Assembly (NCBI RefSeq): GCF_000327485.1
Contig: NC_019943.1
Location: 1,736,001-1,800,000, forward strand
From: Methanoregula formicica SMSP
Lineage (GTDB): Archaea > Halobacteriota > Methanomicrobia > Methanomicrobiales > Methanospirillaceae
Length of the DNA: 64,000 bases
Reading direction: 5' to 3'
Part shown: in pieces, positions 7,495 through 24,186 of the stretch
Layout: every line of letters begins with the position of its first letter
How positions within the stretch are numbered: position 1 is the first letter of the stretch
Translations under genes and position numbers: made by a program
The notes under the pieces: model-generated
The model's input: the letters and a program-made list of their open reading frames with translations, nothing else
What the model was told of the DNA's origin: nothing
The model's database searches: none

Positions 7495-8028
7495 TTAAAT
7501 GCGGTTTGAGCAGATAATGATATTGTTTGCAACGTCGACCGGCTCCTCGCCAAGGAGGATAAGCGGGGCGTTTTTATCACTGCGGTCTTCCGTAAAAATC
7601 ACGTCGGGGACTTCCTCCCGGCAGCACGATGCGATTCCCCAGTCCATCGTGTTGATCCCGTTCGGTGCCCGTGCTGCATTAAAAGAGGCACATTCCAGGA
7701 ACAGGTTCCCGTCCAGGACATCAAGGGCCCTGTCGGAATATCGGAGAATCGCAGCACTCCTGCGGAGCGGGTCGAATTTCATGACAGTAAGGATCACCCG
7801 TGCAATCTCCTCGTCCGCGCCGAAGGCACATGCACCAGCAGGTTTTCCAGCGCCCGTGATCCTTCCTTCAACCGCTGCAACGCCCCCGTTGTCCCGGGCG
7901 CCGCGGATCGCGTAACCGATCTGCGCACCCGTCGGGGGAATGAGCTTTTGGCTGATCGATTCCGCAAGCGGGGCAATGGCTTTCTCCAGCTGTGCGATGA
8001 CGGCGTTGCGCTCGAAGGTCGGGTCCAT
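7495..8028 (-). CDS. ThiN-domain protein (thiamine-phosphate synthase family)
   Basis: A 177-residue standalone ThiN-type domain. Family features are LIPPTGAQIGYAIRGARD and VAAVEGRI near the N-terminus, RSAAILRYSD in the middle, NTMDWGIA, then PDVIFTEDRSDKNAP and EEPVDVANNIIICSNRI at the end. ThiN domains in archaea either make thiamine phosphate (usually fused to ThiD as ThiDN) or bind it as the sensor of the repressor ThiR. This copy has neither a ThiD nor a helix-turn-helix domain, so enzyme and sensor roles both remain open. The ATG at 8028 is preferred to one at 8073 because family similarity starts there. Confidence 0.72.
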   Translation of the reverse strand: MDPTFERNAVIAQLEKAIAPLAESISQKLIPPTGAQIGYAIRGARDNGGVAAVEGRITGAGKPAGACAFGADEEIARVILTVMKFDPLRRSAAILRYSDRALDVLDGNLFLECASFNAARAPNGINTMDWGIASCCREEVPDVIFTEDRSDKNAPLILLGEEPVDVANNIIICSNRI

Positions 8029-8150
8029 TACAAGTAGTGGAGCCCGGGAGATTATTAACGGCGCTGGTGCCACCGTATTTTGTTGCGATTCCTCCTCTTC
8101 TCCCCTTTAAAATTATTATCAGATTCAAAGAAGCACTATTGTCCATTGGT

Positions 8151-8344
8151 ATGATCTTCAAAGTTGTCATAACGCCGGATACCGAAGATGGCGGATATAC
8201 GGCCAGCTGCCCCGCGCTCCCCGGTTGTCATTCCGAAGGGGAGAGCATGGAGGAGGCACTGGAGAACATCAAGGATGCGTTGCCGTACTGAACGAGCGTG
8301 CGCACCGCAGGCAGGGCAGCAAGGTTGCCGAAGTCTCCCTATAA
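8151..8344 (+). pseudogene. hicB antitoxin, broken by a one-base deletion
   Basis: The start reads MIFKVVITPDTEDGGYTA, then the HicB core CPALPGCHSEGES and EEALENIKD. After position 8276 the frame breaks and stops at 8291. If one base is restored there, the sequence continues as VAVLNERAHRRQGSKVAEVSL and stops at 8344, two bases before a hicA-like ATG, the normal hicBA spacing. The restored product would be about 64 residues. A one-base deletion near 8277 is therefore the best explanation; a sequencing error cannot be excluded. Confidence 0.7.
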
Positions 8345-8346
8345 CG

Positions 8347-8409
8347 ATGGTAAAACTTCCCGTAATATCCGGTCATGCTGCAATAAAGGCTTTCAGCAAA
8401 GCCGGGTTT
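8347..8409 (+). pseudogene. hicA toxin, 5' fragment of 21 codons
   Basis: The fragment encodes MVKLPVISGHAAIKAFSKAGF, the N-terminus of a HicA mRNA interferase up to its first helix. The conserved Gly-Ser-His segment that should follow is missing; the frame runs on to 8478 through unrelated sequence. The break coincides with the start of a hepT remnant on the other strand, so a recombination joint lies at about 8410. Confidence 0.65.
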
Positions 8410-8460
8410 ACCGGCAATCGCCTGCCAGGGCATATCCGGATATTCGTTTTGAACGATACC
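8410..8460 (-). pseudogene. hepT toxin remnant (about 17 codons)
   Basis: Read leftward, this encodes VQNEYPDMPWQAIAG, which is nearly the same as the core preceding the catalytic RxxxxHxY motif in the HepT proteins of this window (VQKEYPEIPWRAIAG in the copy at 27.4 kb). Neither the catalytic motif nor the N-terminus is present. It is fused directly to the truncated hicA on the opposite strand. Confidence 0.6.
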
Positions 8461-8510
8461 GGGGGACTGTTCTTCTGAAGGAAGTATGCGGGGACGGTTG
8501 TGGAAACGCC

Positions 8511-8745
8511 ATCCCGGTTCGTTTCGCGTGCTCATGTCCGGAAAAAATAGCGATCCTCCATCCAAAAGGCACCAATTAGGCGATTTTTAGAGGCTGAAAT
8601 GGCACCCAGATCCTGAAAATCTCCCCGGTTCACCCGTATTTCCAAAACCGCCTGCTGCAATTCACGAAAAAAGGCGAGTGTCTGGAAAGCCGTTTTTCAA
8701 AATGGGCTCCGTGTTCGAAGATTTCTGGAGAAATCTTCACTACCT
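8511..8745. repeat. intergenic repeat R3, copy A
   Basis: This stretch matches 28275-28500 in blocks: gtgctcatgtccggaaaaaa, atccaaaaggcaccaatta, cgtatttccaaa, and gtgttcgaaga near the end. On the minus strand both copies can be read as KNRLIGAFW-three residues-R-FFRT followed by a stop, so the repeat may be the decayed end of a gene. The rest of the gap 8479-9028 shows no gene. Confidence 0.6.
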
Positions 8746-9028
8746 CTGGGTCTGATTACCCCTCGGTTCCGAAAAATAACCTCAAATTAAAGAGATAATT
8801 TTCCCTCAAAGAATCTCTTGGATACGCCCGAAAAATAGGGGGTATCCCCCACTCCTGCATATCCACCCCGGGCTAATCCGCCGTAATGAAGCCTGTCTTT
8901 ACCGAGGTACTCATACTATACCGCATAGACGCCGGGCTGGGAACAGATACAGACTGGCGTCTTCCCGGTGCTGCCGATGATCCCGTTGTTCCCGATGTCC
9001 TCAGCTCACAATGCCGGCGCTCCGGCCG

Positions 9029-12000
9029 TCATTTGTACTCCCACCTGAGCGGGTCGCGGTCGCGGCGACGCTTCCGGATGTACCCGGCAACCGCTACCGT
9101 GAGGATGGCGATTGCGGCGATGGCTTCCGCCACCAGGAACCAGGGGTTCTTCCACAGCCCCACGGCTTTTCCCGGTGCGGTTGCGGTATCGGCAATGACC
9201 CCGGCAACATCCTGCTGCGGTGCGGGCTGCACCTCTTCGGTCGGCCACGGGGTGATCCTCACCTTCTGTTTCGTGGGTTCGGTTTGGACCGGGGTTGCGG
9301 TCGGCGTGGCGGTCGCTGTCCCCGTTGCCGTGACCGCAGGAATTGCCGCGGTGGGCGGGTAATAGGAATAACTGTCGCCGTACTCATAGTACGACCAGGA
9401 CGATGATGAACTGCTGCTGGTCGTTGTCGTCACCGGCGCGTATGCGGTCAGGACGAATGTCGAGAGGCCGGTGGGGGAGATGGCGACGAAGTAGTCGTTG
9501 CCGTCCGCAGCGCAGAGGCCGGTCCATTCGGTTGCGAGGAACGTGACCGTGCCTTCGTCCGACCGGTGCATGACTTTGATCCGGGAGGTCCCGCCGTTGT
9601 CCTCGACCCAGGTGTGGTTGACGGCCATCGTGATGTTGGCGCTTTTGATGATGCCGCCGCTCCCGTAGTTGTCAATACCGGACTTCGAGAAGTATACCGT
9701 GTACGCGGTGGCGATGATGTTCTTCTTTTCCGATGCGGCGAGAATGGTGAACGAGCTCCAGACCGAGGAGTCCGGGTCGGAGGTGATAGTGCTGTTGATC
9801 GCGGCCGAGCTATTCGGGAGCTGCGAGAGCGTAAGGGTAAGCGTCACATTCGGTTTGCCGAGCGAGTCGATATTCACGCTGACGTTGGTGGCAACGGCCT
9901 CCAGGCTCTTTACCGTGCCGGTCACGTTCCCGGAGTCGGTCACGGCAGGAGCATCGAGAGTGATCTTCAGGTGGTCCCAGGCAGTGCCGACATTGTCCAC
10001 CGTGACGATATTCGTATTGGTACTGTCGATGGTTGCATTGGCGGCGCTGATGTTGATGCCCTGGCTCGATCCGGTGGCGTTTGTCACGATACCCGGGAGT
10101 TCGAAGGTCTTGTTCGTGCTGACCGGGTTGATTACTGTGATGTAGTTTGTCCGGATCTTCGTATCGGAGCCCTTGCTGTTGGTTGCGTTGAGCTTGACCG
10201 AATAGGTGCCGGCTTTCGTGTAGGTGTAGTCCGGGATCTGTTTTGCTGAGGTACCGTCATCGCCGAAATCCCATGCCCAGCCGGTCGGCGTGTTGAGCGA
10301 GGTGTCCCTGAACCTCGGGTTGAACGGTGCGATGCCTTCGGTCTGGCTGGCGGCGAAGTCCGCGACCGGGGGGATCACCTTCGCGGTGACGGAGTACCCG
10401 CTATCGATGGGGTTGGTCCAGCCCATGCCGGACGAGGCACGGTACCCGTACACGTTGAAGACGGCGTTGTCCGGAAGGTTTGTGAACGCGTAGTCGACCC
10501 GGACCGCGCCGTTGTTCTTCAGGCCCGGACTGCTGCTGAGCAGGCCGGATCTCGTGTCGATGAACATCAGCCGGTACTGGCTGGCCGGGCTGTTCATCTC
10601 CTCTCCCTTGAAGAGCGGGTAGTCCGCGTTGCCCTGCGTGGGTTTCCAGCTCTGCGGGCCGTAGAAGAGGTCGGCTTTCGTGAACGTCTGGTCGAGGGCC
10701 GTGGACTGGTAGGTGTACGTGCCTGCAGACGGTGCTTTTCCAGAAACCGGCGTCCACGTGTACCCGCTGGTCTTGATCCGGGCCGTGAAATCGTCCGGGA
10801 TGGTGCCGTTGACCGCCAGCAGGAGGACGACCTCGTCTTCGTACGAATCCCCGGTGATATAGAATGTCCCGGACTGGCTGTTCGTTATCGTGATCTTGTT
10901 GGACGTGTCCGCAGGATCGGTCGAGAGATGGAGCACGCCAAGACCGCCCGATCCCGTCGGGAGGTAATACGTGCCGTTGTCGTTATCGTTGAACCGGATG
11001 CCGTCGTGGTTCGCTGTCCGGATGTATGTCTTGTTGTTACCCGGGACCGGGCCGGTGGCGTTGACCACGTACACGAGGCCGGCCTTTGTAACGGTGCTGC
11101 TTCCCCCGGCATTAGTTACCGTGAGCTTGACCGGGTAGGTCCCGGCCGAGCCGTAGGTGTGTGTCGGGTCCCGGTACGTCGAGGTCGCAGTATCACCGAA
11201 GTTCCAGGACCATGACGTCGGGCTGTTGGTCGAGGTGTCGGTGAAGGTTACGGCCAGCGGGGCGACGCCGTTGACCTGGGTGGCGGTGAAGGAGGCGACA
11301 GGGGAGGGAGTGGGTGTGCCGCTGCCACCACAGGTGGTGGCGGAACCGGCGCAGAAGTCGTCGATGTTGGCATTCATTCCCAGACTATTCACATCGAATG
11401 CAACTTGCACCAGATGAACTCCGGTGTACCCGGATATCGGGACTCTATATTGTGTCCAGCTATGGGCGCATATATCGGTCTGGACCAAGACACCATCGAT
11501 ATAGGTTTTAAAATACTGGTTATAAGAACTACTGCCGTCCTCATATCCCCAGAACGAGATGTTGGAAATATCAGTCAGATCGACATGCTGCGCAATGTAA
11601 TCATATGTAGTGTGACCCATATAATCGAAAAAAACGGCATAATTTCCAGTATGTACTTTACTTGAGGAGACGGATGTATACCCAACGCCTGCGGTCCAGT
11701 CTGTCAGATCTCCCGTCTCGAATCCGGGGTTACTGAACCGGTTGGTTGCCACTGATGGAGTGACCGTGATGAGATTTGTTTTCAGGAGACTGTCATTGCC
11801 CCCGCCATTCATTACGGTCAGGTTAACCGTGTATGTCCCAGGCGCATACCAATGGATCGGGTTCTGTTCGGTCGAGGTGATTCCATCCCCGAAGTCCCAC
11901 GACCAAGCAACCGGGGAATTGGTTGAGGTATCGTTGAACTGAACCGCTACAGGTGAGATACCTGAGGTGACATCCGCAGTGAAGTCCGCAACCGGAACCG

Positions 12001-14854
12001 GGGGAACGGATATGTTTATTGTCCGGGTCGTTAAGTCTGTGCCTTTTATATTCGTCGCCGTGAGTTTTACTGAGTAAGTCCCCCCTGAGGCAAATGGGTG
12101 GGACGGGTTCTGGAGGGTCGATGTAGTACCGTCACCGAAGTCCCAGAGCCAGGATTGCGGGACATTTGCCGATGTGTCGGTAAACCGGATGGGAACAAGA
12201 TTATATTCCGATGTCGTACTTGGTGAGAATCCAGCAACCGGAGCTGCCGGAATCCCGATGACCGAATACCCACTGGCACCGTAGGTGGAGCCCCCCAGGA
12301 CATCGTTGGTCATGATCATGGTACCGTGATTACTGGCAAGATACCACCCGTACGCATTGAATGCAGCGAAACTCGTCAGGTTGGTGAACGCATATTCAAT
12401 TTTGATATTGTCATATGCTTTTCCGGCGTTCAGGTCGATGAACATGATCCGGAACTGGTTGATGGGATCGGCCTGGTCCTCCCCGTAATAGATCGGATAT
12501 CCATCGGGTTTCCAGCTCTGGGGGCCGTAGATGAAATCATCCTTCGTGAATGTCTGGTCTACGGCGCCTTCGACATAATTCCACACTGACGGTAAGCCCC
12601 CATTAGAATAGGCAGGACCGGGAGGCGTCCAGTTGTCCCCGCTCGACCGGATATGGACACGGAAATCATCGGGGATCGTCCCGTTGACGGCGAGCATCAG
12701 GATCCCCTCGGGCACGGTCGATTGTCCTCCGGTATGGGTGAAATAGAATGTACCGGACTGGTTGGTGGTGGTGGTTATATCAGAGACGGAGTTTCCCGAT
12801 GAGATGTGCAGGGCGTTCAGTCCCCCCATCGTGGCGAAAGAGTAGGTATTGGGGACATAGACAAGATTGGTGCCGTTGATATCGTACTTGACTCCCTCGT
12901 CATTGGCTACGTAGAGATAGGGGTAGTCCATATTTATAGGCCCTGGCGTTACGACCGTGATGAATCCCGGTTTTGAAAGATTGGTTCCCCAGCCGATGGC
13001 ATTTTTTGCGGTAAGATTTACCATATAGGTGCCTGAACTTGCATACGTGTGGACCGGATTCTGCATGGTCGCATTTTCATTGCTCCCGTCCCCGAAGTCC
13101 CAAAGCCACGCGGTTGGCTGAAGGGTCGAGGTGTCGTGGAACTGCACGGTCAGGGGCGCTTTTCCGCTTACTCTTGGGGATCCGGTAAATGAGACAACCG
13201 GCGCAGTCGAATAGAGCGTGATATATCCTGTTTTGCTTGTCTTGTTGCTCCCAGCTAAGTTGGTTGCCGTCAGGTTGACGGTATATGTTACCGTATCTGT
13301 TCCTGTAGTGGAATAAGAATGGGTTGGATTCTGAATATCCGATGTCACACCATCCCCGAAGTCCCAGTGCCACAATGTTGGTGAACCTGTCGACGTGTCG
13401 GTAAACTGAACGGTAAACGGGCTTTTCCCGGAGGTGACGTCCGATGTGAAACCTGCGGCCGGTGGAGAATAAACCTTGATATAATCAGATTTGATTGCAT
13501 AGTTTGTTCCACTGGCGTGAGTGATCGTCAGTTTGACGGTATATGAACCGGGATTTGCATAGGAATGCTCCGGGTTCTGTTCGTCCGATGTCATGCCATC
13601 CCCGAAGTCCCAGTGCCACGTAGTTACCGCGAGAGGCGATGAGCCTATGAACTTAATGCTAAGAGGTGCTGAACCATTGATTGGACTTGCGGAAAAGTCT
13701 ACTACACCAGTAAATGCATATAATCCCCTACTGCCGGAATAACTTGTAATATATAGTGTTCCATCCGAACCGATTGAGGGAGAACCATCAGGTCTTACTC
13801 CGTTAGTAAGATAAAACCATTTCAGAGTTCCAGTTGGATTGAGAGCATAGATTTTACCATCACGACTTCCGATGTAGATGGTTCCATCCGCACCAATTGC
13901 AGGTGAAGCCCATAATATTACACCTCCCGTAGTGTAGCTCCATTTCAGGGTTCCATCCGGGTTCCATGCATATACCTTTTTATCATTGCATCCGACGTAA
14001 ATAGTTCCATCCGCACCAACTGCAGCTGAACCATACATTTTTCCTCCTGTCGTATTGCTCCATTTCAGGGTTCCATCCGAATTAAATGCATAAAATTTGG
14101 AAGTACTACTCGAACCGATATAGATTGTTCCATCTGATCCAATCACTGGTGAGGCCCTGAAAGGCACATTTGCAGAAGAATTACTCCACTTCAGGGTTCC
14201 ATCCGGATTATATGCATAGAGGGTATTCTTTGATTCACTTCCAATGTAAATGGTGCCATCCGATCCAATCGCCGGGGTAGCATATTGTGCGGTTCCTGTC
14301 GTATTGCTCCATTTCAGGGTTCCATCTTGGGGATCGAACGAATATAATGCATCGGCTCCAACATAAATCGTTCCATCTGCACCAATCGCAGGTGAACCAT
14401 ATAGGGAAGTACCGAACGTAGCGGATTGCCACTTTTTGGTTCCGTTTGGATTAATTGCGAAAAGCTTATAATCGTTACTCTCCACATAGATGGTTCCATC
14501 TGCACCAATTGCAGGCGAACCATAAATAAAAGATGTCGAACTACTCAACGATACCTGCCACTTTTGAGTTCCGTTTGGATCCAAAGCTCGGAGATTCGCA
14601 TCCTGACTTCCAATATAAATGGTCCCATCAAATCCAATAACTGGATTAACGTACCAAAAGTCTCCAGCATTCGTATAAATCCATTTGGTTGTATTTGATT
14701 GTGATCCGGTATACTGAGATCGTCCAGTGTTCTGGAGATCGTGCTGGAATTTTGGCCATGCAGTATTCGCAAGCTCTGCTGCGACCGGAACAAACAACAG
14801 GGCAAGGAAAAGAATAAGGATTCCTATACGGAATCTGAACTCATATATTTTCAT
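9029..14854 (-). CDS. giant cell-surface protein: PQQ-like propeller, seven PKD domains, C-terminal membrane anchor
   Basis: A 1941-residue exported protein. Residues 1-26 are a signal peptide (IGILILFLALLFVPVAA). Residues about 35-385 hold eight or more PQQ-like propeller repeats of the type IGADGTIYVGS...NPDGTLKW. PKD domains with the WDFGDG motif lie near 390, 465, 550, 870, 955, 1180 and 1500. Two copies of a domain shared with the neighbouring protein (LNALHISS/LGVLHLST, VNGTIPDDF, YGPQSWKP) lie near 640-865 and 1275-1495, and a lectin-like NPGFETGDLTDW domain near 1036-1175. A Ser/Thr/Pro-rich stalk, a membrane helix (WFLVAEAIAAIAILTVAVAGY) and a basic tail end it. It is likely an envelope or adhesion protein. 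The ATG at 14854 follows GGGGGAT. Confidence 0.88.
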   Translation of the reverse strand: MKIYEFRFRIGILILFLALLFVPVAAELANTAWPKFQHDLQNTGRSQYTGSQSNTTKWIYTNAGDFWYVNPVIGFDGTIYIGSQDANLRALDPNGTQKWQVSLSSSTSFIYGSPAIGADGTIYVESNDYKLFAINPNGTKKWQSATFGTSLYGSPAIGADGTIYVGADALYSFDPQDGTLKWSNTTGTAQYATPAIGSDGTIYIGSESKNTLYAYNPDGTLKWSNSSANVPFRASPVIGSDGTIYIGSSSTSKFYAFNSDGTLKWSNTTGGKMYGSAAVGADGTIYVGCNDKKVYAWNPDGTLKWSYTTGGVILWASPAIGADGTIYIGSRDGKIYALNPTGTLKWFYLTNGVRPDGSPSIGSDGTLYITSYSGSRGLYAFTGVVDFSASPINGSAPLSIKFIGSSPLAVTTWHWDFGDGMTSDEQNPEHSYANPGSYTVKLTITHASGTNYAIKSDYIKVYSPPAAGFTSDVTSGKSPFTVQFTDTSTGSPTLWHWDFGDGVTSDIQNPTHSYSTTGTDTVTYTVNLTATNLAGSNKTSKTGYITLYSTAPVVSFTGSPRVSGKAPLTVQFHDTSTLQPTAWLWDFGDGSNENATMQNPVHTYASSGTYMVNLTAKNAIGWGTNLSKPGFITVVTPGPINMDYPYLYVANDEGVKYDINGTNLVYVPNTYSFATMGGLNALHISSGNSVSDITTTTNQSGTFYFTHTGGQSTVPEGILMLAVNGTIPDDFRVHIRSSGDNWTPPGPAYSNGGLPSVWNYVEGAVDQTFTKDDFIYGPQSWKPDGYPIYYGEDQADPINQFRIMFIDLNAGKAYDNIKIEYAFTNLTSFAAFNAYGWYLASNHGTMIMTNDVLGGSTYGASGYSVIGIPAAPVAGFSPSTTSEYNLVPIRFTDTSANVPQSWLWDFGDGTTSTLQNPSHPFASGGTYSVKLTATNIKGTDLTTRTINISVPPVPVADFTADVTSGISPVAVQFNDTSTNSPVAWSWDFGDGITSTEQNPIHWYAPGTYTVNLTVMNGGGNDSLLKTNLITVTPSVATNRFSNPGFETGDLTDWTAGVGYTSVSSSKVHTGNYAVFFDYMGHTTYDYIAQHVDLTDISNISFWGYEDGSSSYNQYFKTYIDGVLVQTDICAHSWTQYRVPISGYTGVHLVQVAFDVNSLGMNANIDDFCAGSATTCGGSGTPTPSPVASFTATQVNGVAPLAVTFTDTSTNSPTSWSWNFGDTATSTYRDPTHTYGSAGTYPVKLTVTNAGGSSTVTKAGLVYVVNATGPVPGNNKTYIRTANHDGIRFNDNDNGTYYLPTGSGGLGVLHLSTDPADTSNKITITNSQSGTFYITGDSYEDEVVLLLAVNGTIPDDFTARIKTSGYTWTPVSGKAPSAGTYTYQSTALDQTFTKADLFYGPQSWKPTQGNADYPLFKGEEMNSPASQYRLMFIDTRSGLLSSSPGLKNNGAVRVDYAFTNLPDNAVFNVYGYRASSGMGWTNPIDSGYSVTAKVIPPVADFAASQTEGIAPFNPRFRDTSLNTPTGWAWDFGDDGTSAKQIPDYTYTKAGTYSVKLNATNSKGSDTKIRTNYITVINPVSTNKTFELPGIVTNATGSSQGINISAANATIDSTNTNIVTVDNVGTAWDHLKITLDAPAVTDSGNVTGTVKSLEAVATNVSVNIDSLGKPNVTLTLTLSQLPNSSAAINSTITSDPDSSVWSSFTILAASEKKNIIATAYTVYFSKSGIDNYGSGGIIKSANITMAVNHTWVEDNGGTSRIKVMHRSDEGTVTFLATEWTGLCAADGNDYFVAISPTGLSTFVLTAYAPVTTTTSSSSSSSWSYYEYGDSYSYYPPTAAIPAVTATGTATATPTATPVQTEPTKQKVRITPWPTEEVQPAPQQDVAGVIADTATAPGKAVGLWKNPWFLVAEAIAAIAILTVAVAGYIRKRRRDRDPLRWEYK

Positions 14855-15273
14855 ATCCCCCACACTTCCTCTGGGAGGGAGAATGTACGGCGGATATTCC
14901 CGGTGAATGAACACGAGAACCCTACTTCGTAACGGGTTATCTGGTTCATAGTTATATTGTCAGGGGGTATTAGGAATCTTGTTGCCATCCGCGAGATCAT
15001 TAGAACAACAATATCCGGAACAAACAGGAAGAAGGACTGGGTAGGGAAACAGCAAATCATATCCATTATTGTCATATTTTGAAAAGGGCTACGTAAATTG
15101 ATTTCTATTTACATTTTTAAAAAGTTAATATTTTATTTTTTACAAAAAGATAAGACAAGAGTACGTGTAAATCCCAAATAATAATCAGGTGTTTCTCGTT
15201 GAAAATATCCAAAAAAAGAGGGATTTACTGCCGAAATTCGACATCACTCGGCTTTAATAATTTCAAGTTAAGG
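14855..15273 (-). promoter_or_regulatory. AT-rich region between two surface-protein genes
   Basis: This 419-bp gap follows the 15.3-kb gene and precedes the giant gene on the minus strand. Its right half is strongly AT-rich (15100-15160, with runs such as ttaatattttattttttac), suitable for a terminator of one gene and a promoter of the next. The motif tcatattttga at about 15071-15081 also occurs in the cassette promoters at 16.3, 18.3 and 19.5 kb. No gene is seen. Confidence 0.4.
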
Positions 15274-16218
15274 CTACTCAGATGGCGGAATAACCAACCA
15301 TCCGCTGGAATTCGGCTTAATTAATCCATCGGTCCGTTGATCATAAGAATACACCATATTCAGCCAGTTGATACCCGGTGCCAGGGACTCCTTCCCCAGC
15401 GAGGTCTGGTTGTTAGCTGCATAGACATTGAAGGCAATCCTTGCCTTGTCTGAGGGAGCACTCAGGATGTTGTATTCGATCTTCGTTGTACCATTGTTAT
15501 ATATCAGGTCGGGATCGTATTTTGCATTATACCAGGTACCGTTGATTGTTCCAATCTTGTTATCAACCACGATAAACTTGAATAATAAGCTTCCGGATCC
15601 CATATCCTGATCACAGTAGATGGGATACTCCGCAGTTGGTGCAAACTTCCATTTCTGGAATAGATCTACGGAATTATTTTCCAAGTAGTTATCTGCGTTG
15701 AGTGTCACGTCAATTGACGGATCTTTGTAAACGACGGTCTGATTGGGAGACCCAGTTGATGTTGGTATCCAGTAATACCCACGCTCCTTGATGTTAATGC
15801 TGAAATTGCTGATATCTGTTGGTTCACTACTGTTGACCGCTATGAGGAGGATAATGTCATCCTCACCACCTTTTCCGCCAGTATCCGATACATAGAATGT
15901 ACCAGAAAGGGCATTCGTCTGATCGCAGAATCCTTTGAAATCCGCAGTGTTATTCGTAATGTGGAGCGCGTTCAGTCCACCCGTGGGTTTCGTCAGGTTG
16001 ACGTAATAATACGGGTCACCCAGATATGTGCTACTGAATCTGATGGGAGGATTTGCCATCGGGATATACGTGTGATTGTTCGTATACGGCGCACTGTTTG
16101 AGTACGGCGTTACATTATAATTCGCCGCCACCGGCCCAACCGCCAGCGCGACGAACAGGAGGACGACCGCAGAGGCCATCCACCATAGTCTGTTCATGTC
16201 TTTGTTTCCTTTTTCCAT
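15274..16218 (-). CDS. secreted surface protein related to the giant protein
   Basis: A 314-residue exported protein. The signal peptide MNRLWWMASAVVLLFVALAV with cleavage near GPVAA-N starts at residue 8. The mature part is one copy of the domain found twice in the giant neighbour: GGLNALHITN, SGTFYVSDTGG, ILLIAVNSSEP, GYYWIPT, a segment like YGPQSWKP (FQKWKFAP), and RIAFNVYAAN. No PKD repeat or membrane anchor is seen, so it is probably released or assembled onto other surface proteins. The ATG at 16218 lies seven bases after GGAGGT. Its promoter, leader and signal peptide are copied at 18.2 and 19.4 kb. Confidence 0.78.
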   Translation of the reverse strand: MEKGNKDMNRLWWMASAVVLLFVALAVGPVAANYNVTPYSNSAPYTNNHTYIPMANPPIRFSSTYLGDPYYYVNLTKPTGGLNALHITNNTADFKGFCDQTNALSGTFYVSDTGGKGGEDDIILLIAVNSSEPTDISNFSINIKERGYYWIPTSTGSPNQTVVYKDPSIDVTLNADNYLENNSVDLFQKWKFAPTAEYPIYCDQDMGSGSLLFKFIVVDNKIGTINGTWYNAKYDPDLIYNNGTTKIEYNILSAPSDKARIAFNVYAANNQTSLGKESLAPGINWLNMVYSYDQRTDGLIKPNSSGWLVIPPSE

Positions 16219-16230
16219 AGTCTGTACCTC

Positions 16231-16253
16231 CGCGCAGGGCACCGCCCCGCGCG
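16231..16253 (-). promoter_or_regulatory. leader hairpin next to the ribosome site, cassette copy 1
   Basis: The sequence cgcgc-a-gggc-acc-gccc-c-gcgcg folds into a nine-pair hairpin with one mismatch and a three-base loop. It directly abuts the GGAGGT ribosome site of the surface-protein gene. The same 23 bases occur unchanged at 18261-18283 and 19467-19489. A role in translation control is inferred. Confidence 0.55.
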
Positions 16254-16254
16254 C

Positions 16255-16326
16255 GTCAACAAAAAACCATTGATCATGGCGGTTTGTTAACAATGAAACA
16301 TTGATCAAAATATGACACGATATATC
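16255..16326 (-). promoter_or_regulatory. TATA promoter and upper leader hairpin, cassette copy 1
   Basis: On the minus strand CGAAAGATATATCG (TATA core at plus 16318-16326, preceded by a BRE-like cgaaag) is a good archaeal promoter, placing the RNA start near 16295. Immediately downstream, 16255-16291 can fold by pairing gtcaacaaa...acc with ggtttgttaac. The corresponding hairpin in copies 2 and 3 uses different bases but still pairs. Confidence 0.55.
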
Positions 16327-16593
16327 TTTCGGCCAAGTAAAAATGAGAATATAATTTGTTTTTGAGATTCCTGCGGCATATTATGCCGGATCGATAATTC
16401 TCGCCGTGAACGATCGGATGGACCGGGAGCGGTGCACCGGAGAAAGGATTATGAAGAGGGCCGGGCGGATGCGAGGGAGGATAGGCGGGCCGGGGAGTGC
16501 ATGCGACCCGGCAGGGGATGATACTCCGGCGACTCCCTCACAAATCCTTATCAGATACACAATACAACATAAGAGACAAAGGTGCTCGAAAAA

Positions 16594-16755
16594 ATGCCGG
16601 CAAAAAAATTCAAACCGGAAGACGTTATCGGGAAACCCTACCGGAGAGGCCTGCTCCCGTACGGGGGTGGAATTGTTCGGGGAAAGATCGCATTTGCAGT
16701 CAGTGAGGAAGAGCACAACGCCGATATGAAACGATTGAAAGCTCTTCGTCCATGA
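16594..16755 (+). CDS. small hypothetical protein, 53 aa, possible orphan antitoxin
   Basis: A 53-codon frame beginning MPAKKFKPEDVIGKPYRRG and ending EEEHNADMKRLKALRP. The basic N-terminus and the acidic helical C-terminus are typical of small DNA-binding antitoxins, but I recognise no named family. It starts about 55 bp after the end of an R2 repeat, the same position that R2 copies hold before the TA operons at 19.9 and 20.9 kb. No toxin partner follows; the next gene is hicB. The composition and codon use look like real coding sequence. Confidence 0.45.
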   Translation: MPAKKFKPEDVIGKPYRRGLLPYGGGIVRGKIAFAVSEEEHNADMKRLKALRP

Positions 16756-16907
16756 ACCCCTCTATTTTTCTCGATACTCCGGTATTTCCCGTGCATTGAA
16801 CATCCATTATCCGGCACAATACCTGGACATGCAATGAATGCCTTGAGTTCCAGCACCACATATCTCATTACCAGGTACAAACATACAGGTAACCGGAGAG
16901 AGGGCAT

Positions 16908-17186
16908 ATGCGGAATCTCATCACCACTGCCGAAATCTGGAAAGAGGGGGGCATGTATACGTCCTATTGCCCGGAGCTCGATATCGCCAGCTGCGGTCAC
17001 ACACCGGAAGAAGCGCGTAAGAACTTACTGGAAGTCATCGCTATTCAGCTGGAAGAAACGGAAAAACTGGGAACTCTTGATGATCTGCTCAGCGAATCCG
17101 GGTATACCCGGGACGGGGATGTGATCAAGACCGGCAAAAAGATCGTTTGCTTTGAAGAGATCCGGGTCCCGGTCTCAATACAATAA
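16908..17186 (+). CDS. hicB: HicB family antitoxin
   Basis: A 92-residue HicB. The partial RNase-H-like fold is seen as TTAEIWKEGGMYTSYCPELDIASCGHTPEEARKNL, with the conserved Tyr-Cys-Pro-Glu-Leu and the alternating helix after it. HicB proteins bind and block HicA and often repress their own promoter. The C-terminus (GKKIVCFEEIRVPV) is the strand that packs against HicA in related pairs. The ribosome site GGAGAGAGGG lies just before the ATG. hicA starts 78 bp downstream, an unusually wide gap that holds a perfect palindrome. Confidence 0.85.
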   Translation: MRNLITTAEIWKEGGMYTSYCPELDIASCGHTPEEARKNLLEVIAIQLEETEKLGTLDDLLSESGYTRDGDVIKTGKKIVCFEEIRVPVSIQ

Positions 17187-17189
17187 TAC

Positions 17190-17205
17190 GGAATATATAT
17201 ATTCC
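17190..17205. promoter_or_regulatory. 16-bp perfect palindrome between hicB and hicA
   Basis: ggaatatatatattcc is a perfect 16-base palindrome with a central TATA-like core, four bases after the hicB stop codon and 60 bases before hicA. It could be an operator for HicB, an internal promoter for hicA, or both. Its position inside the operon is unusual. Confidence 0.5.
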
Positions 17206-17264
17206 ACGATACGAGATCGTTTGTTCGCCAGCAACTTCTCCAGGTCTGTCGCGTGTGATGCCTG

Positions 17265-17492
17265 ATGAAAAAAATTTCCCCAACAGACTGGAAAACACAG
17301 GTACGGGTATTTGAAAAATCAGGATGCACATTTATTCGCCAGAGCGGCGATCATTTGATCTTCCACCATCCCTCTGCAAAACGGGCAGTCGTGATTCCCC
17401 GGTATGATGAAGTCCCTGTTACGATCATCCTCAATAATATGAAAACTATCGGCATGACGCGGGAAGAATATCTCCGGCGGATTCAGGAATAA
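17265..17492 (+). CDS. hicA: HicA family toxin (mRNA interferase)
   Basis: A 75-residue HicA with a double-stranded RNA-binding-like fold. It shows KSGCTFIRQSGDHLIFHHP, containing the catalytic histidine segment (Gly-Asp-His in place of the commoner Gly-Ser-His), then VVIPRYDEVPVTIILNNMKTIGMTREEYL. HicA cleaves mRNA when not bound by HicB. The product looks intact and of normal length. A PIN-domain fragment begins three bases after its stop codon. Confidence 0.85.
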   Translation: MKKISPTDWKTQVRVFEKSGCTFIRQSGDHLIFHHPSAKRAVVIPRYDEVPVTIILNNMKTIGMTREEYLRRIQE

Positions 17493-17494
17493 TC

Positions 17495-17689
17495 ATGTCA
17501 CGATCCGCGAACCCACGGACCGGACTTAACCACGCATATGCGATGGCGTACAATTCAGATTATTTCCTGACTTCAGACAAGAACCTGATCAAGTACCGTA
17601 TTCCGGCTATGTTGGAAAACGCCGGGTTCTTCAAACCGGAAACGATGCCCCTTGAACAATTCCGGGATGAGATCTCAAAGAAGAAATGA
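17495..17689 (+). pseudogene. PIN-domain (VapC) C-terminal fragment
   Basis: A 64-codon frame whose middle reads NHAYAMAYNSDYFLTSDKNL, typical of the last third of a VapC-type PIN ribonuclease, where the final metal-binding aspartate lies in TSDK. The N-terminal two thirds, with the first aspartate and the glutamate, are absent; hicA abuts the break. It is not expected to be an active nuclease. The open frame suggests that the break is recent or that the piece is kept. Confidence 0.55.
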
Positions 17690-17783
17690 TCTGATGGACC
17701 AGGTAAGAAATGGCGAAACTCATGTCAGGTAAAACAGCTTTGTACAATCATTGAAAAATATTCGCTTCTGGAGGAGGAGCCCG

Positions 17784-18038
17784 GTGTATAAATATGCAAT
17801 AGAGATCTTCTACAGCGAAGATGATGAGGGGTATATTGCGGTGGTACCGGAATTGCCCGGCTGCTCGGCATATGGTGAAAGCGAAGAACAGGCATTACGG
17901 GAGATCAAGACCGCGATAGATCTCTGGCTGACAACTGCCCGGAGCATGAGACGTGAGATCCCGGAGCCGCAGGGCAGGGAAGTATTGCGCGATCTCCTGG
18001 ACGAGCGTTCGCGGCAGAACGCTACTTCATGCGAGTGA
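17784..18038 (+). CDS. orphan HicB family antitoxin
   Basis: An 84-residue HicB-like protein: YAIEIFYSEDDEGYIAVVPELPGCSAYGESEEQAL, then a helix (IKTAIDLWLTTARSMRREIP) that ends in a Pro-rich linker and a charged tail. The GTG at 17784 is chosen because GGAGGAG stands a few bases before it; upstream codons back to 17751 are not family-like. No HicA frame follows: the downstream sequence is the converging signal-peptide cassette. It may neutralise the HicA at 17.3 kb, act on its own, or be a relic. Confidence 0.75.
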   Translation: MYKYAIEIFYSEDDEGYIAVVPELPGCSAYGESEEQALREIKTAIDLWLTTARSMRREIPEPQGREVLRDLLDERSRQNATSCE

Positions 18039-18128
18039 CAGCCAGCCGTACATGCTCCCATCCCCGCCAATGTTGGACCCGTACGTGCCAGCGGCGGCAT
18101 GCTTTACATTGTACACTGATAGATTCAC

Positions 18129-18248
18129 TCATTGTAGGGAAATAATCTTATCCGCCGCCACCGGCACCACTGCCGCAGCGACGAACAGGAGGACGACCGC
18201 AGAGGCCATCCACCACAATCTGTTCATGTCCTTGTTTTCTTTTGCCAT
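18129..18248 (-). CDS. signal-peptide-only ORF, cassette copy 2 (39 aa)
   Basis: The minus strand encodes MAKENKDMNRLWWMASAVVL and on through LLFVAAAVVPVAAD, then six unrelated residues and a stop. This is a complete Sec signal peptide matching that of the surface protein at 15.3-16.2 kb, with the same GGAGGT ribosome site, leader hairpins and promoter, but with no mature protein attached. It may be a decapitated gene or a kept leader cassette. Confidence 0.5.
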   Translation of the reverse strand: MAKENKDMNRLWWMASAVVLLFVAAAVVPVAADKIISLQ

Positions 18249-18535
18249 AGTCTGTACCTCCGCGCAGGGCACCGCCCCGCGCGCGCGTTAAAAATTAGTA
18301 ATTGGTTTTACCAATTTTTAACATCAAACTGTTAATCGAAATATGACACGATATATCTTTCAACTGAGTGAAAAATAAGAATATAATTTGTTTTAGGGAT
18401 TCCTGCGGCATATCGGGCCGGATAAAAAATCCTCGCCGTGAACGATCGGATGGACCGGGAGCGGTGCGGCTGCGAAAGGATTATGGGCGAGATCGGGCGG
18501 ACGCAAAGGGGATACGGCGGGGGTACCGGATGGAA
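18145..18535 (-). repeat. composite repeat copy 2: signal peptide, leader, promoter and R2 element
   Basis: Copy 2 of the composite repeat. The invariant GC hairpin is at 18261-18283, the upper hairpin (gttaaaaatt paired with aatttttaac) at 18287-18322, the TATA core cgatatatc at 18349-18357, and R2 from about 18416 with ccgtgaacgatcggatggac. Differences from copy 1 are spread through the repeat, so the duplication is not very recent. The gap 18249-18570 holds nothing else. Confidence 0.75.
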
Positions 18536-18570
18536 CAATCATCCCATGAACATGCCCCGGGTCAGGGGAC

Positions 18571-19050
18571 TCATCTGGTAAAAAGCGATTCCGGATCAAG
18601 ATCCCGGATCAGCCAGGCAGCAATCGATCTCCGCTGGCAGATCCGGAACATCCCCGCATCGTCAGTAAACAATGGAACCGACTTCAGCTCGGCAAGCGCA
18701 AGAAAATAGGTATCAAAACCTGGACATCCTTCATCAAGAGCAATGGTCATCGCAGTCTCGTAAACACGATCTTCCGGGACAAGCGTGTAGCTGTTTTCCA
18801 CTTCATTACAGATATCCTTGGAATTGTGAGAATTGGAAAGCCTTATGGATACCGCAGCAATCTCGATAAGGCCGCAGCGGGGAAGGATCACTTCTATCCC
18901 GTGGTCATCAAGAGCAGCAAGCAATGCGATACAAGAGTGATGAGTTTTTAATTCCCTAGAATAGGTAACGCCCGCATTCTTTCGTGACGGGGAGAAGAGT
19001 GCCTTGATGATAACGGAGGTATCGATAACACAGGAAGAAAACTCAGGCAT
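18571..19050 (-). CDS. vapC: PIN-domain toxin (VapC-like)
   Basis: A 159-residue PIN nuclease. The acidic metal-binding residues are visible: Asp in CVIDTSVIIKAL, Glu in CGLIEIAAV, Asp in CPGFDTYFLALAEL and Asp in LFTDDAGMF. VapC toxins cut tRNA or rRNA. The ATG at 19050 overlaps the end of the antitoxin gene by eight bases, and upstream in-frame residues belong to the antitoxin region. The gene looks intact and ends 41 bp from an R2 repeat. Confidence 0.83.
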   Translation of the reverse strand: MPEFSSCVIDTSVIIKALFSPSRKNAGVTYSRELKTHHSCIALLAALDDHGIEVILPRCGLIEIAAVSIRLSNSHNSKDICNEVENSYTLVPEDRVYETAMTIALDEGCPGFDTYFLALAELKSVPLFTDDAGMFRICQRRSIAAWLIRDLDPESLFTR

Positions 19051-19246
19051 CCCGTATTCGTCTCCGGTTCTTCGCAAGGATAGTATCAATATCCTCTTTA
19101 GCCTCCGGTTCACCGAATTTTTTTACAAAATCAGAAAATTTTTTCCGGATCACAACTTCTACCCGGGCATGTTCCGGAAGGTTCACGCGATCCTCAAGTA
19201 TGAGCGTCCCTTCTTTATACACGGCATTCGTTTTGATCGCAGACAC
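19043..19246 (-). CDS. vapB: VapB-type antitoxin (DUF104/AbrB-like)
   Basis: A 67-residue antitoxin. The N-terminal swapped-hairpin DNA-binding part is NAVYKEGTLILEDRVNLPEHARVEVVI, close to the DUF104 family of archaeal antitoxins, and the acidic C-terminus (EPEAKEDIDTILAKNRRR) would wrap the toxin. It overlaps vapC. It lies about 100 bp downstream of cassette copy 3 on the same strand, so that promoter and its 34-codon leader peptide could drive this operon. Confidence 0.8.
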   Translation of the reverse strand: MSAIKTNAVYKEGTLILEDRVNLPEHARVEVVIRKKFSDFVKKFGEPEAKEDIDTILAKNRRRIRDA

Positions 19247-19349
19247 AATTCATCACAACCGGATAATTCACATCATAATAGCAGGGAATTAAAGATAATG
19301 GTTGTGATGAAAGAATTTTAATATTCTGAATCATCCGCAGACAATCAGC

Positions 19350-19454
19350 TCACGGATAATCCGCCGCCACCGGCGCAACCGCCAGCGCGACAAACAGGAG
19401 GACGACCGCCGAGGCCATCCACCATTGTCTGTTCATGTGTTCTTGTTTCTTCAT
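19350..19454 (-). CDS. signal-peptide-only ORF, cassette copy 3 (34 aa)
   Basis: The minus strand encodes MKKQEHMNRQWWMASAVVLL and on through FVALAVAPVAADYP, then a stop. It has the same promoter, hairpins and ribosome site as the genuine surface-protein gene. As in copy 2, nothing of the mature protein remains. The vapBC operon follows on the same strand. Confidence 0.5.
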   Translation of the reverse strand: MKKQEHMNRQWWMASAVVLLFVALAVAPVAADYP

Positions 19455-19740
19455 GTTCTGTACCTCCGCGCAGGGCACCGCCCCGCGCGCGTTAAAAATT
19501 AGTAATTTACATTTACCAATTTTTAACATAAAACCGTTGATCAAAATATGACACGATATATCTTTCGTTTGCATGAAAAGGTTGAATATATTTTATTTTT
19601 GAAATTCCTGCAGAATATTATGCCGGATCGATAATTTTCGCCGTGAACGCTCGGATGGACCGGGAGCGGTGCACCGGAGAAAGGATTATGAAGAGGGCCG
19701 GGCGGATGCGAGGGAGGATAGGCGGGCCGGGGATATAGTG
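19357..19740 (-). repeat. composite repeat copy 3: signal peptide, leader, promoter and R2 element
   Basis: Copy 3. The GC hairpin is at 19467-19489, the upper hairpin (gttaaaaatt / aatttttaac) at 19491-19527, the TATA core at 19554-19562, and R2 at about 19622-19735, nearly identical there to copy 1. A relB-like gene begins about 120 bp to the right on the other strand. The gap 19455-19860 contains no other gene. Confidence 0.75.
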
Positions 19741-19847
19741 CAGGGAACCAGGGGAACGTGCCGGAAAAACCCGGATTTCCGACACATCTGCACGAGCCCG
19801 GTGACATAAGATCCAATCTATCGCAGGATTTATCCGTTTACAATAGT

Positions 19848-19859
19848 TACAATATTGTA
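19848..19859. promoter_or_regulatory. 12-bp palindrome before the RelBE-type operon at 19.9 kb
   Basis: tacaatattgta is a perfect 12-base palindrome ending two bases before the ATG at 19861. The position suits an autorepressor site for the antitoxin. A related half site, acaatagt, lies just upstream. Confidence 0.5.
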
Positions 19860-19860
19860 T

Positions 19861-20136
19861 ATGACCGCACTTACCAAGCGGATACCCGTGTCCGAACCGG
19901 TCTGGAAAGACCTTGCAGAGCTGCGGAGGGCCGGGCAGACCTACGATGACATCCTCGTGGAGATGATCGACCTCCAGAAGAAACAGCGGCTTGAGGAAGA
20001 TATCCGGCAATCCCTTGAAGAAGGTGATTTTGTTCCTCTCAATGAGATCAAGGCACGGAAAAATAAAGGATATGCAACGGGAGAACGGACCACACCCAAG
20101 ATTACCCGGAACAAACGCCAGGGTCTCCCGGCATAG
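19861..20136 (+). CDS. RelB-like antitoxin
   Basis: A 91-residue antitoxin candidate. The N-terminus (TKRIPVSEPVWKDLAELRRAGQTYDDILVEMI) reads as a ribbon-helix-helix-like DNA-binding domain, followed by a charged helix and a Lys/Arg-rich tail. The ATG at 19861 is preferred to a TTG two codons earlier. The RelE-like toxin starts 20 bp downstream. A palindrome next to the start suggests autoregulation. The tail (KITRNKRQGLPA) is longer and more basic than usual. Confidence 0.75.
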   Translation: MTALTKRIPVSEPVWKDLAELRRAGQTYDDILVEMIDLQKKQRLEEDIRQSLEEGDFVPLNEIKARKNKGYATGERTTPKITRNKRQGLPA

Positions 20137-20156
20137 ACGATCCGGATCTGGTACCC

Positions 20157-20444
20157 TTGGGTTTTACCGTGGTTGCCGGGCCAAAAGCCCGGGCGTTTAT
20201 CGATCTCCTGCCCGTAAAAGATCAACAGATCATCGTTACCACTCTTGACCGGCTGGCAGCCGGTCCCTGGCCGGGGAAAGGCGGCGATAAAGAGAAACTC
20301 GTACTACCCGGGGGAATCATCTCGTACCGGATACACGTTGGCAGAAGGTATACGGCATTCTATACAATTGACAAAGAAGCAAAACGGGTCCTGGTTCATT
20401 TTGTGATGACCATCGAGCAGGCCCATAAGAAATACGGGCGCTGA
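20157..20444 (+). CDS. RelE/ParE family toxin
   Basis: A 95-residue RelE-superfamily protein: FTVVAGPKARAFIDLLP, a helix, LAAGPWPGKGGDKEKLVLPGG, then the core strands ISYRIHVGRRYTAFYTIDKE and VLVHFVMTIEQAHKKYGR. The Arg/Tyr-rich strands match mRNA interferases of this fold. The best start is TTG at 20157, since no ATG or GTG is in frame nearby. It is probably translated together with the antitoxin. Confidence 0.78.
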   Translation: MGFTVVAGPKARAFIDLLPVKDQQIIVTTLDRLAAGPWPGKGGDKEKLVLPGGIISYRIHVGRRYTAFYTIDKEAKRVLVHFVMTIEQAHKKYGR

Positions 20445-20543
20445 TGATCCACAGTTTTCTAGAGAGCCGGAAGAATTATTAAAGAAATCCCCGGCCGGAA
20501 TGACGCAATCCGGCAGGATCTCTAAATAACATTCAAAAACCTG

Positions 20544-20726
20544 TCAACACTCTCGACACGTCTCAATAACCTCCTTGACCCGGGAACGTGCTTCCTCAAT
20601 AGTCCTGCCGTAGGTATGACAGCCTTTGAACTGAGGACAAGAGACAATAAACACACCGTCTTCATCCGCCGTCCCAATAATAATAAGATGATGGAGTGGT
20701 TTTGTACCTGATCCGTTGGCATCCAA
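20544..20726 (-). CDS. HicB-like orphan antitoxin, possibly truncated
   Basis: A 60-residue frame with a HicB core: LIIIGTADEDGVFIVSCPQFKGCHTYGRTIEEARSRV. The only start is TTG at 20726, and protein-like codons continue a little upstream without a start, so the 5' end may be lost. The end (VIETCREC) stops abruptly, and another frame continues with DRFLNVI and a stop at 20522, which may mark a frameshift. No hicA is present. Treat as a degenerate or unusual HicB. Confidence 0.5.
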   Translation of the reverse strand: MDANGSGTKPLHHLIIIGTADEDGVFIVSCPQFKGCHTYGRTIEEARSRVKEVIETCREC

Positions 20727-20794
20727 ACGTAAATTCTTTTTGTCGTTACTTGTAGTGGTTCGCGGAATATAATTCGTGATGAGACCTGTCGGGG

Positions 20795-20877
20795 GCCCCG
20801 GGCGGACGCAAGGTGGACGGCGGGGCCTGGGTGAGCATGCGACCTGGCAGGGGATGACACCCCCCGTACCTCCGCCG
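20795..20877 (-). repeat. partial R2 repeat, copy 4
   Basis: ccgggcggacgcaaggtgga followed by gagcatgcgacctggcagggg matches the right-hand part of composite copy 1. The promoter and signal-peptide portions are absent. It ends about 55 bp before a RelBE-type operon, like copies 1 and 3 before their neighbours. Confidence 0.55.
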
Positions 20878-20915
20878 CGGGCAATCCCGAAGGATCTGGT
20901 TTAATATCTATAGTC

Positions 20916-20925
20916 ACCTATAGGT
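20916..20925. promoter_or_regulatory. palindromic operator candidate before the RelBE-type operon at 20.9 kb
   Basis: acctataggt is a perfect 10-base palindrome seven bases before the ATG at 20932, and ctatag is repeated just upstream at 20908-20913. A TATA-like ttaatatcta at 20901-20910 overlaps it, so a repressor bound here would block transcription. Confidence 0.5.
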
Positions 20926-20931
20926 CTTACT

Positions 20932-21168
20932 ATGCAGGCTGCAAGTTCCATTTACATCCGGGAAGATCTCAAAACCCAGCTGAACACCCTGAAACGTCAC
21001 CCGAAAGAATCGTACAATGACGTTATTGAACGCCTGGTGAATCTTGCTGTTGACGATGAACCGCTCAGTGCCGATGCTATCCGGGGTCTGGAAGAAGGTC
21101 TCCATGATATCAAAGCGGGAAACCTGATCCCTGAAGAGGAAATCCGGAAGAAATACGGTGCTGAATGA
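20932..21168 (+). CDS. antitoxin of a RelE-type pair (ribbon-helix-helix-like)
   Basis: A 78-residue protein: SSIYIREDLKTQLNTLKRHPKESYNDVIERLVNLA looks like a ribbon-helix-helix DNA-binding domain, and the acidic C-terminal helix (LEEGLHDIKAGNLIPEEEIRKKYG) is the usual toxin-binding element of archaeal RelB/VapB proteins. Its stop overlaps the toxin start by four bases (ATGA), the classic coupled TA arrangement. An operator-like palindrome precedes it. Confidence 0.82.
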   Translation: MQAASSIYIREDLKTQLNTLKRHPKESYNDVIERLVNLAVDDEPLSADAIRGLEEGLHDIKAGNLIPEEEIRKKYGAE

Positions 21169-21440
21169 GCCCGTACAGAGTACAGTACACCCATCGTGCA
21201 GACCGGGATCTGGAAAAATTACCCCGGGAGATTGCCCGGAAGGTTGTCAGTGCGATTCACCAGATACGGGATGACCCGTACCAGTTCATCAAAAAAATGA
21301 AGGCGTCAAACCCGGATCATCCGGTGTATTCACTCCGTGTCAGAAGAGACGTTCGTGCACTGCTCTCAATCCATGATGACCTCCTGATTATTCATGTTCT
21401 TGAAATCGAACACAGGAAACAGGCATACCGGGATTTCTAA
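21165..21440 (+). CDS. RelE family toxin
   Basis: A 91-residue RelE-like mRNA interferase: YRVQYTHRADRDLEKLPREIARKVVSAI, then DDPYQFIKKMKAS, the strands VYSLRVRRDVRALLSIHDDLLIIHVLEIEHRKQAYRDF with the conserved Arg residues and C-terminal Tyr-Arg. It is complete and of normal length, with coupled translation from the antitoxin. Only this pair and the one at 19.9 kb are RelE-type here, and the two toxins are clearly different in sequence. Confidence 0.85.
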   Translation: MSPYRVQYTHRADRDLEKLPREIARKVVSAIHQIRDDPYQFIKKMKASNPDHPVYSLRVRRDVRALLSIHDDLLIIHVLEIEHRKQAYRDF

Positions 21441-21450
21441 AAAACATATT

Positions 21451-21540
21451 CCGGCCGGGCGGCAGCACAAATTCTGGCGCATGCCAGCCGCACGGGAGCA
21501 GGAGAGGGGACACAGGCGAACCGGGAACGCGGGCCGGGAG
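21451..21540 (+). repeat. R1 repeat, copy a
   Basis: Begins ccggccgggcggcagcac and continues through gccagccgcacgggagcagg to cgaaccgggaacgcgggccg. It lies ten bases after the RelE stop. The rest of the gap to 21746 shows no gene. Confidence 0.75.
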
Positions 21541-21746
21541 CGGGAACAAGAAAAGATGCAGGAGGAGGTGGGACGGGGAACCCGGGTCTGTGCAGTTCTA
21601 CCGGAGATGGCCTTCTCGTTGTGAGCGGAATACCTGGACGAACACGTAAAAACCCGCCCGAAAAGATCGGGCCCTTATGCAAAGTTGCCCCCGAATGCAG
21701 GAGTGTGAGAAGACCGGAACGGAGGAATAAAAGCCGGGTCTTTTAA

Positions 21747-22881: not shown

Positions 22882-23116
22882 CGTAATCGTTTCTCCACAA
22901 AAATTAAAAAAATTAATGAAATTAATTGGTGGCCTTAATTGATATAATTTTCATCATTTCCAAAAAAGATCCGGGATATCGTTCTTAACAAAGACGACTG
23001 GTTACCTTGCCAGGCACAAATCAAATGACTGCCCATGGAAGCAAAAACGCCAAACGAAATCCGGATTCAGGGGTTTGAAGTCTTGGGAGAAAATCCCGTG
23101 CCTGCGGACGCGATCC

Positions 23117-24091: not shown

Positions 24092-24186
24092 CCGGCGTGG
24101 CTGCCTTTACCCTGGTGGCGGACCTTCTAAAAATCCTCTCTTCATCAGTCTTTTAATCAGGAAAGCCGAGGAGACCCGGGGGAGTT

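What the first reader, a model, noticed from the sequence alone, without database searches (positions are those of the whole stretch)
8151..8460. Chimeric graveyard: frameshifted hicB, truncated hicA and an antisense hepT remnant joined at one base region
hicB is broken by a one-base deletion near 8277 and hicA ends after 21 codons. At position 8410 the sequence becomes, on the other strand, a 17-codon hepT core (NEYPDMPWQAIAG). This records at least two TA modules and an illegitimate recombination joint outside the main island.
Basis: seen in the sequence. Interest (0 to 1): 0.6.

Follow-up and report, generated by a model that had tools for sequence, protein, structure and literature searches.

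The report
Broken toxin-antitoxin remnants at island edge
This stretch holds the fused wreckage of two ordinary toxin-antitoxin gene pairs (hicBA and mntA-hepT) at the left edge of a 23-kb mobile island in a methane-making archaeon, and a sister species carries the same wreck almost letter for letter, so the dead DNA travelled between species with the island.

Summary
The core observation holds. 8103-8416 is a dead hicB-hicA pair, 82% identical in DNA to an intact pair elsewhere in the same chromosome. At about 8411 it is joined to a piece of hepT on the minus strand, 81% identical to the hepT at 27418-27765. Two details and one inference need correction. hicB lost 13 bp between two GATGC repeats, not one base. 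hicA homology runs 23 codons. The wreck is not outside the main island: in relatives, thiN sits next to an HD-domain gene (45-122 bp apart) or close to the primase gene priL, whereas here thiN and the HD gene are 23 kb apart, and the wreck is the island's left edge.

Sister species Methanoregula sp. STB_131 carries the same joint. The wreck differs there by 1.2%, as little as the island's intact toxin-antitoxin genes (dS 0.00-0.016) and far less than core genes, most of which have dS 0.4-1.0. The island therefore passed between the species recently, and the wreck was already broken. Past the hepT piece lies a dispersed repeat that also lies upstream of an intact mntA-hepT pair, suggesting that one deletion removed the rest of that module.

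Best reading: ordinary pseudogenes without current function. Interest low to moderate.

The parts
7495..8031 (-). thiN, core gene bordering the island on the left
   Evidence: Pfam ThiN 134.5 bits; orthologues in 28 of 30 congeneric genomes
8067..31303 (.). whole island between thiN and the HD-domain gene (left joint somewhere in 8067-8102, right joint in 31249-31303)
   Evidence: HD and thiN lie 45-122 bp apart in 10 relatives; the leader motif next to thiN is shared with L061 up to about 8066
8103..8150 (+). 5' leader of the dead hicBA pair, still homologous to the leader of the intact pair
   Evidence: DNA match 8103-8416 to G000:818043-818378
8151..8291 (+). hicB 5' part, 46-codon open frame ended by the frame shift
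   Evidence: Pfam PF15919, 32.7 bits
8274..8278 (+). remaining GATGC at the 13-bp hicB deletion
   Evidence: alignment to the intact copy
8279..8344 (+). hicB 3' part in another frame (VAVLNERAHRRQGSKVAEVSL, then stop)
8347..8416 (+). truncated hicA, first 23 codons; the rest of the toxin is missing
8411..8463 (-). internal piece of a hepT gene (VQNEYPDMPWQAIAG), possibly extending to 8472
   Evidence: 81% DNA identity to 27560-27613 inside hepT 27418-27765(-); shuffle test
8473..8501 (.). 29 bp of unassigned sequence between the hepT piece and the dispersed repeat
   Evidence: no match apart from G052
8502..8828 (+). copy of a dispersed repeat (about 265 bp consensus, more than ten copies in the genome) carrying an extra hairpin stretch of about 55 bp near 8711-8766
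27418..28110 (-). intact hepT (27418-27765) and mntA (27781-28110), closest relatives found for the hepT piece; followed by the same dispersed repeat at 28265-28584
   Evidence: Pfam
30650..31248 (-). hepT-mntA pair at the island's right edge, near-identical in the sister species
   Evidence: dS 0.013-0.016; Pfam HepT-like
31304..31894 (-). HD-domain gene, core gene bordering the island on the right
   Evidence: next to thiN in relatives; dS 1.03 to the sister species

Best explanation
8103-8472 is non-functional debris of two common type II toxin-antitoxin modules at the left border of a 23-kb toxin-antitoxin island. SHOWN: a hicB-hicA pair lost 13 bp inside hicB between 5-bp direct repeats. 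Its hicA was cut after 23 codons by a joint to an antisense internal piece of hepT. A dispersed repeat follows the hepT piece. A sister species has the identical joint and the identical hicB lesion in dead DNA that differs by 1.2%, like the island's intact TA genes and unlike the core genes. INFERRED: the pair was under selection as a working module for most of its history and broke late. Replication slippage made the hicB deletion. Non-homologous joining with little or no microhomology fused hicA to hepT. A further deletion, from inside hepT to near the dispersed repeat, removed the rest of hepT and mntA. The broken assembly then moved between species as passive cargo of the island and has no present function.
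For: hicBA match to the intact copy at 818 kb. The intact family is a hicB-then-hicA operon: 61 of 80 relatives have a hicA match, nearly all within 80 bp, 58 nearly full length. Divergence from the intact copy is mostly silent (dS 0.61, dN 0.045, ratio 0.07 over 88 codons), so breakage came late. hepT piece. The island's own hepT-mntA (27418-28110) is followed by the same repeat in the same orientation (28265-28584), which fits one deletion having joined hepT to the repeat region. Same joint in G052, 99% identical, on a 60-kb contig colinear with the window at about 88%; its record title is Methanoregula sp. STB_131. Graveyard 8 differences in 657 bp, against core dS 0.4-1.0 for six core genes and 0.12-0.16 for two short conserved ones, and island TA genes 0.00-0.016. 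The four longest near-identical tracts in the compared stretch all lie inside the island. Site without island in relatives.
Against: The 46-codon hicB frame and the 43-codon hicA-hepT fused frame are open, so a short product cannot be excluded from sequence. 29 bp between the hepT piece and the repeat are unexplained. The actual hepT donor was not found (best match 81%). The single-deletion history is inferred from order and orientation only.
Confidence: 0.88

Rival explanations
1. The remnant is kept because it does something: for example the 46-residue HicB stub acts as a spare antitoxin against intact HicA toxins of the island or the 818-kb copy, or the antisense hepT piece gives an RNA that dampens hepT messages.
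For: The stretch is 98.8% identical in a sister species; the hicB leader is retained; intact HicA proteins exist elsewhere in the genome.
Against: Intact TA genes of the same island have silent-site divergence just as low (0.00-0.016), so recent transfer explains the identity without selection. The stub has lost the last third of the 68-residue HicB from its frame. No Rfam family matches, and the downstream repeat at 8500-8830 has no fold stronger than shuffles.
Confidence: 0.05
2. Antisense hepT is a chance resemblance; only a truncated hicA lies there.
For: Pfam finds no HepT and a family-specific profile gives only E 0.18.
Against: DNA identity of 81% over 54 bp to one particular hepT, Smith-Waterman 54 against a maximum of 29 in 1000 shuffles; the joint falls exactly where hicA homology stops.
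Confidence: 0.02
3. The lesions are sequencing or assembly errors.
For: None beyond the general possibility.
Against: The same 13-bp lesion and the same joint occur in an independently assembled genome of another species.
Confidence: 0.01
4. The wreck is an old resident, inherited vertically by both species from their common ancestor, and the near-identity of island DNA reflects gene conversion or slow change, not recent transfer.
For: Both species carry it at the same chromosomal site; the near-identical tracts are patchy within the island.
Against: Silent-site divergence is at least 25 times lower than in most core genes on both sides, with sharp drops at the island borders near 8021 and 31303. 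Recurrent conversion would itself be recent exchange.
Confidence: 0.08

Closest known systems
HicBA type II toxin-antitoxin family (HicB_lk_antitox PF15919, HicA_toxin PF07927)
   Same: Sequence, gene order hicB then hicA, and leader match an intact pair in the same genome; 58 of 80 database relatives have a near-full hicA.
   Different: Both genes are broken: 13-bp frame-shifting deletion in hicB, hicA cut after 23 codons.
MNT-HEPN (mntA-hepT) type II module, HepT-like PF01934
   Same: 8411-8463 is a diverged internal piece of hepT, closest to the module at 27418-28110.
   Different: Only about 18 codons remain, no mntA, no start or stop; not detectable by the Pfam profile.
TA islands with multi-module horizontal transfer (Makarova et al. 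2009, PMC2701414)
   Same: Clustered TA modules, inserted in one lineage between genes that are neighbours in relatives. That paper also describes an MNT-HEPN module inserted in a lysine biosynthesis operon of one Thermus strain; here the island abuts thiN, S17e and the dapA-dapB lysine genes.
   Different: Here the border of the island is itself a TA wreck that is shared, already broken, by two species.

Membership tests
HicBA type II toxin-antitoxin module | HicB antitoxin domain recognised by profile | tested here: met
   5' part only: PF15919 32.7 bits over profile positions 1-41 of 123
HicBA type II toxin-antitoxin module | Intact hicB reading frame | tested here: not met
   13-bp deletion, stop after 46 codons
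HicBA type II toxin-antitoxin module | Complete HicA toxin with its catalytic histidine and C-terminal half | tested here: not met
   Homology ends after 23 codons, before the histidine of the intact copy; no Pfam match
HicBA type II toxin-antitoxin module | Common descent with intact hicBA pairs | tested here: met
   82% DNA identity over 336 aligned positions, E 2.5e-93
mntA-hepT (MNT-HEPN) module | HepT domain by profile | tested here: not met
   No Pfam match; family-specific profile E 0.18
mntA-hepT (MNT-HEPN) module | Common descent with hepT at DNA level | tested here: met
   81% over 54 bp, beyond 1000 shuffles
mntA-hepT (MNT-HEPN) module | Adjacent mntA nucleotidyltransferase gene | tested here: not met
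   None within the remnant; the dispersed repeat follows at 8502
TA genomic island | Insert absent from relatives at the same site | tested here: met
   HD-thiN 45-122 bp apart in 10 relatives
TA genomic island | Integrase, att sites or target duplication | tested here: inconclusive
   No repeat of 8 bp or more shared by the two borders; integrase genes were not searched for systematically

The most novel reading that the evidence does not exclude
The island is a platform of toxin-antitoxin cassettes punctuated by short direct repeats (about 127 bp, seven copies; about 375 bp, three copies) that lets modules be gained, lost and swapped between species at one fixed chromosomal site, and the wreck at 8103-8472 is its dead far end, where old cassettes pile up and decay.
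Probability: 0.2. Interest if true: 0.5.

Novelty: new member of a known kind. Interest (0 to 1): 0.25.

Why it matters
Decayed TA modules in islands are expected, so the wreck itself changes little. It is useful as a marker: because it is dead, its near-identity in two species whose core genes differ widely at silent sites dates the exchange of the island independently of selection on the working TA genes. It also shows that island transfer carries broken modules along with live ones.

Tried and rejected
Function from conservation: rejected after silent sites of the intact island TA genes proved as similar between the species as the wreck. RNA element: no Rfam match up to E 5 in 7900-9100, and the downstream repeat folds no better than shuffles on either strand. 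Target-site duplication at the island borders: none of 8 bp or more. hicBA wreck in other congeneric genomes: of the 39 genomes searched (the window's own included), only G052 shares the joint. A closer hepT donor in the genus: not found. Literature: no open-access paper was found that holds both 'Methanoregula formicica' and 'toxin-antitoxin'.

Full report
WHAT WAS CHECKED. The window is G000:C1:1736001-1800000 of a single-contig genome of 2,820,858 bp. From the size and the neighbours I take it to be Methanoregula formicica, which is my own inference and was not looked up; the genus is supported by the record title of the closest genome. Reading 8103-8520 against an intact hicB-hicA pair at 818 kb of the same chromosome (L033) gives 82% identity over 336 aligned positions. 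Homology starts about 48 bp before hicB and stops inside hicA.

THE LESIONS. hicB is read as HicB_lk_antitox up to NIKDA and then runs into a stop after 46 codons. Against the intact copy it lacks 13 bp between two GATGC repeats, one of which remains at 8274-8278. hicA keeps its first 23 codons (8347-8416). At 8411 the sequence becomes, on the other strand, an internal piece of hepT: 81% DNA identity over 54 bp to 27560-27613, inside hepT 27418-27765(-), with a Smith-Waterman score of 54 against at most 29 in 1000 dinucleotide shuffles. Pfam does not see so short a piece, and a profile of the genome's own 11 HepT proteins ranks it first among non-genes in the window at E 0.18. At the joint the two parents could share about 2 to 6 bases (8410-8415), so joining with little or no microhomology is the likely mechanism; this is inference.

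AGE OF THE BREAK. Over 88 codons the remnant and the intact copy differ mainly at silent sites (dS 0.61, dN 0.045, ratio 0.07). For most of the time since they parted both were therefore under selection as working modules, and the remnant broke late. In the database the family is a hicB-then-hicA operon: 61 of 80 relatives have a hicA match, nearly all within 80 bp, 58 of them near full length.

WHAT FOLLOWS THE HEPT PIECE. After 29 unassigned bases comes a copy of a dispersed repeat (8502-8828; consensus about 265 bp, more than ten copies in the genome and a few in congeners). In the island an intact hepT-mntA pair on the same strand (27418-28110) is followed by the same repeat in the same orientation at 28265-28584. 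The simplest history is that the wreck had the same arrangement and that one deletion removed most of hepT and all of mntA. Order and orientation support this; it is not proven.

WHERE IT LIES. In 10 congeneric relatives an HD-domain gene ends 45-122 bp before thiN; most of the other loci have the primase gene priL within the 1.5 kb upstream of thiN that was fetched. In this genome the HD gene is at 31304-31894 and priL at 32118-33212, 23 kb from thiN. The leader next to thiN is shared with relative L061 up to about 8066. The insert is thus 8067-31303, it holds surface-protein genes and many TA modules, and the hicBA wreck is its left edge.

THE SISTER SPECIES. Genome G052 has the joint at 99% identity. 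Its contig C1 (60,486 bp) has the same length as NZ_JAQTQD010000017.1, Methanoregula sp. isolate STB_131, and is colinear with the window at about 88%. In the wreck (8032-8690) only 8 of 657 positions differ. Six of eight core genes compared have dS of 0.4-1.0 (asd 0.46, dapB 0.41, dapA 0.51, thiN 0.69, HD 1.03, priL 0.64); two short, conserved ones, a ferredoxin and S17e, have 0.12 and 0.16. Intact TA genes of the island have 0.00-0.016. Identity drops sharply at about 8021 and at about 31303, and the four longest tracts of at least 97.5% identity in the compared stretch all lie inside the island. The surface-protein genes inside the island are diverged (dS 0.49-0.56, dN 0.14-0.20), with a near-identical tract in one of them, so the exchange is patchy. 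The best reading is recent transfer of island segments between the two species, with the wreck already broken. Selection on the wreck is not needed to explain its identity.

VERDICT. Two ordinary TA modules, broken and fused, carried as dead cargo at the edge of a TA island. TA islands and multi-module transfer were described by Makarova et al. 2009 (PMC2701414), which also reports an MNT-HEPN module inserted in a lysine biosynthesis operon; the present island abuts lysine genes too, which may be coincidence. New here are the corrected anatomy, the placement at the island border, and the use of a dead locus shared by two species as a clock for island exchange.

Noticed in passing
window 21450, 23116, 25001, 26250, 27235, 28797, 29870 (+ strand): A repeat of about 127 bp in seven direct copies (77-94% identical to the 28797 copy), several of them just 5' of a TA module; only one further copy in the genome, at 728 kb.
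   Followed up: partly
window 16117-16496, 18150-18521, 19356-19733: A direct repeat of about 375 bp in three copies (81-86% identical); two copies bracket the hicBA/hicB block 16500-18150, which is 99-100% identical in G052 over its genes.
   Followed up: partly
window 8502-8828 and 28265-28584: Dispersed repeat of about 265 bp with more than ten copies in the genome; in at least three places (28265; G000:1941684; G000 near 1215780) it lies upstream of a minus-strand hepT gene. No Rfam match for the 8502 copy, no strong fold.
   Followed up: partly
window 8711-8766: Hairpin stretch of about 55 bp inside the dispersed repeat, absent at this place in G052 and present at another position of the repeat copy at 28265; a similar 59-bp unit is in tandem in G014 (L053). 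It may be a small mobile unit.
   Followed up: partly
L127 (NZ_JAQTQD010000049.1, Methanoregula sp. STB_131): A second broken hicB in the sister species: 5' end missing, no hicA match, 88% identical to the intact 818-kb copy of the window's genome.
   Followed up: partly
window 7495-8031: thiN is unusually diverged between the two species (78% identity, dN 0.156) compared with neighbouring core genes.
   Followed up: no
window 9029-14914: Large surface protein with PKD and PQQ repeats (1961 aa), diverged between species overall but with a tract at 9951-10700 of at least 97.5% identity: mosaic.
   Followed up: no
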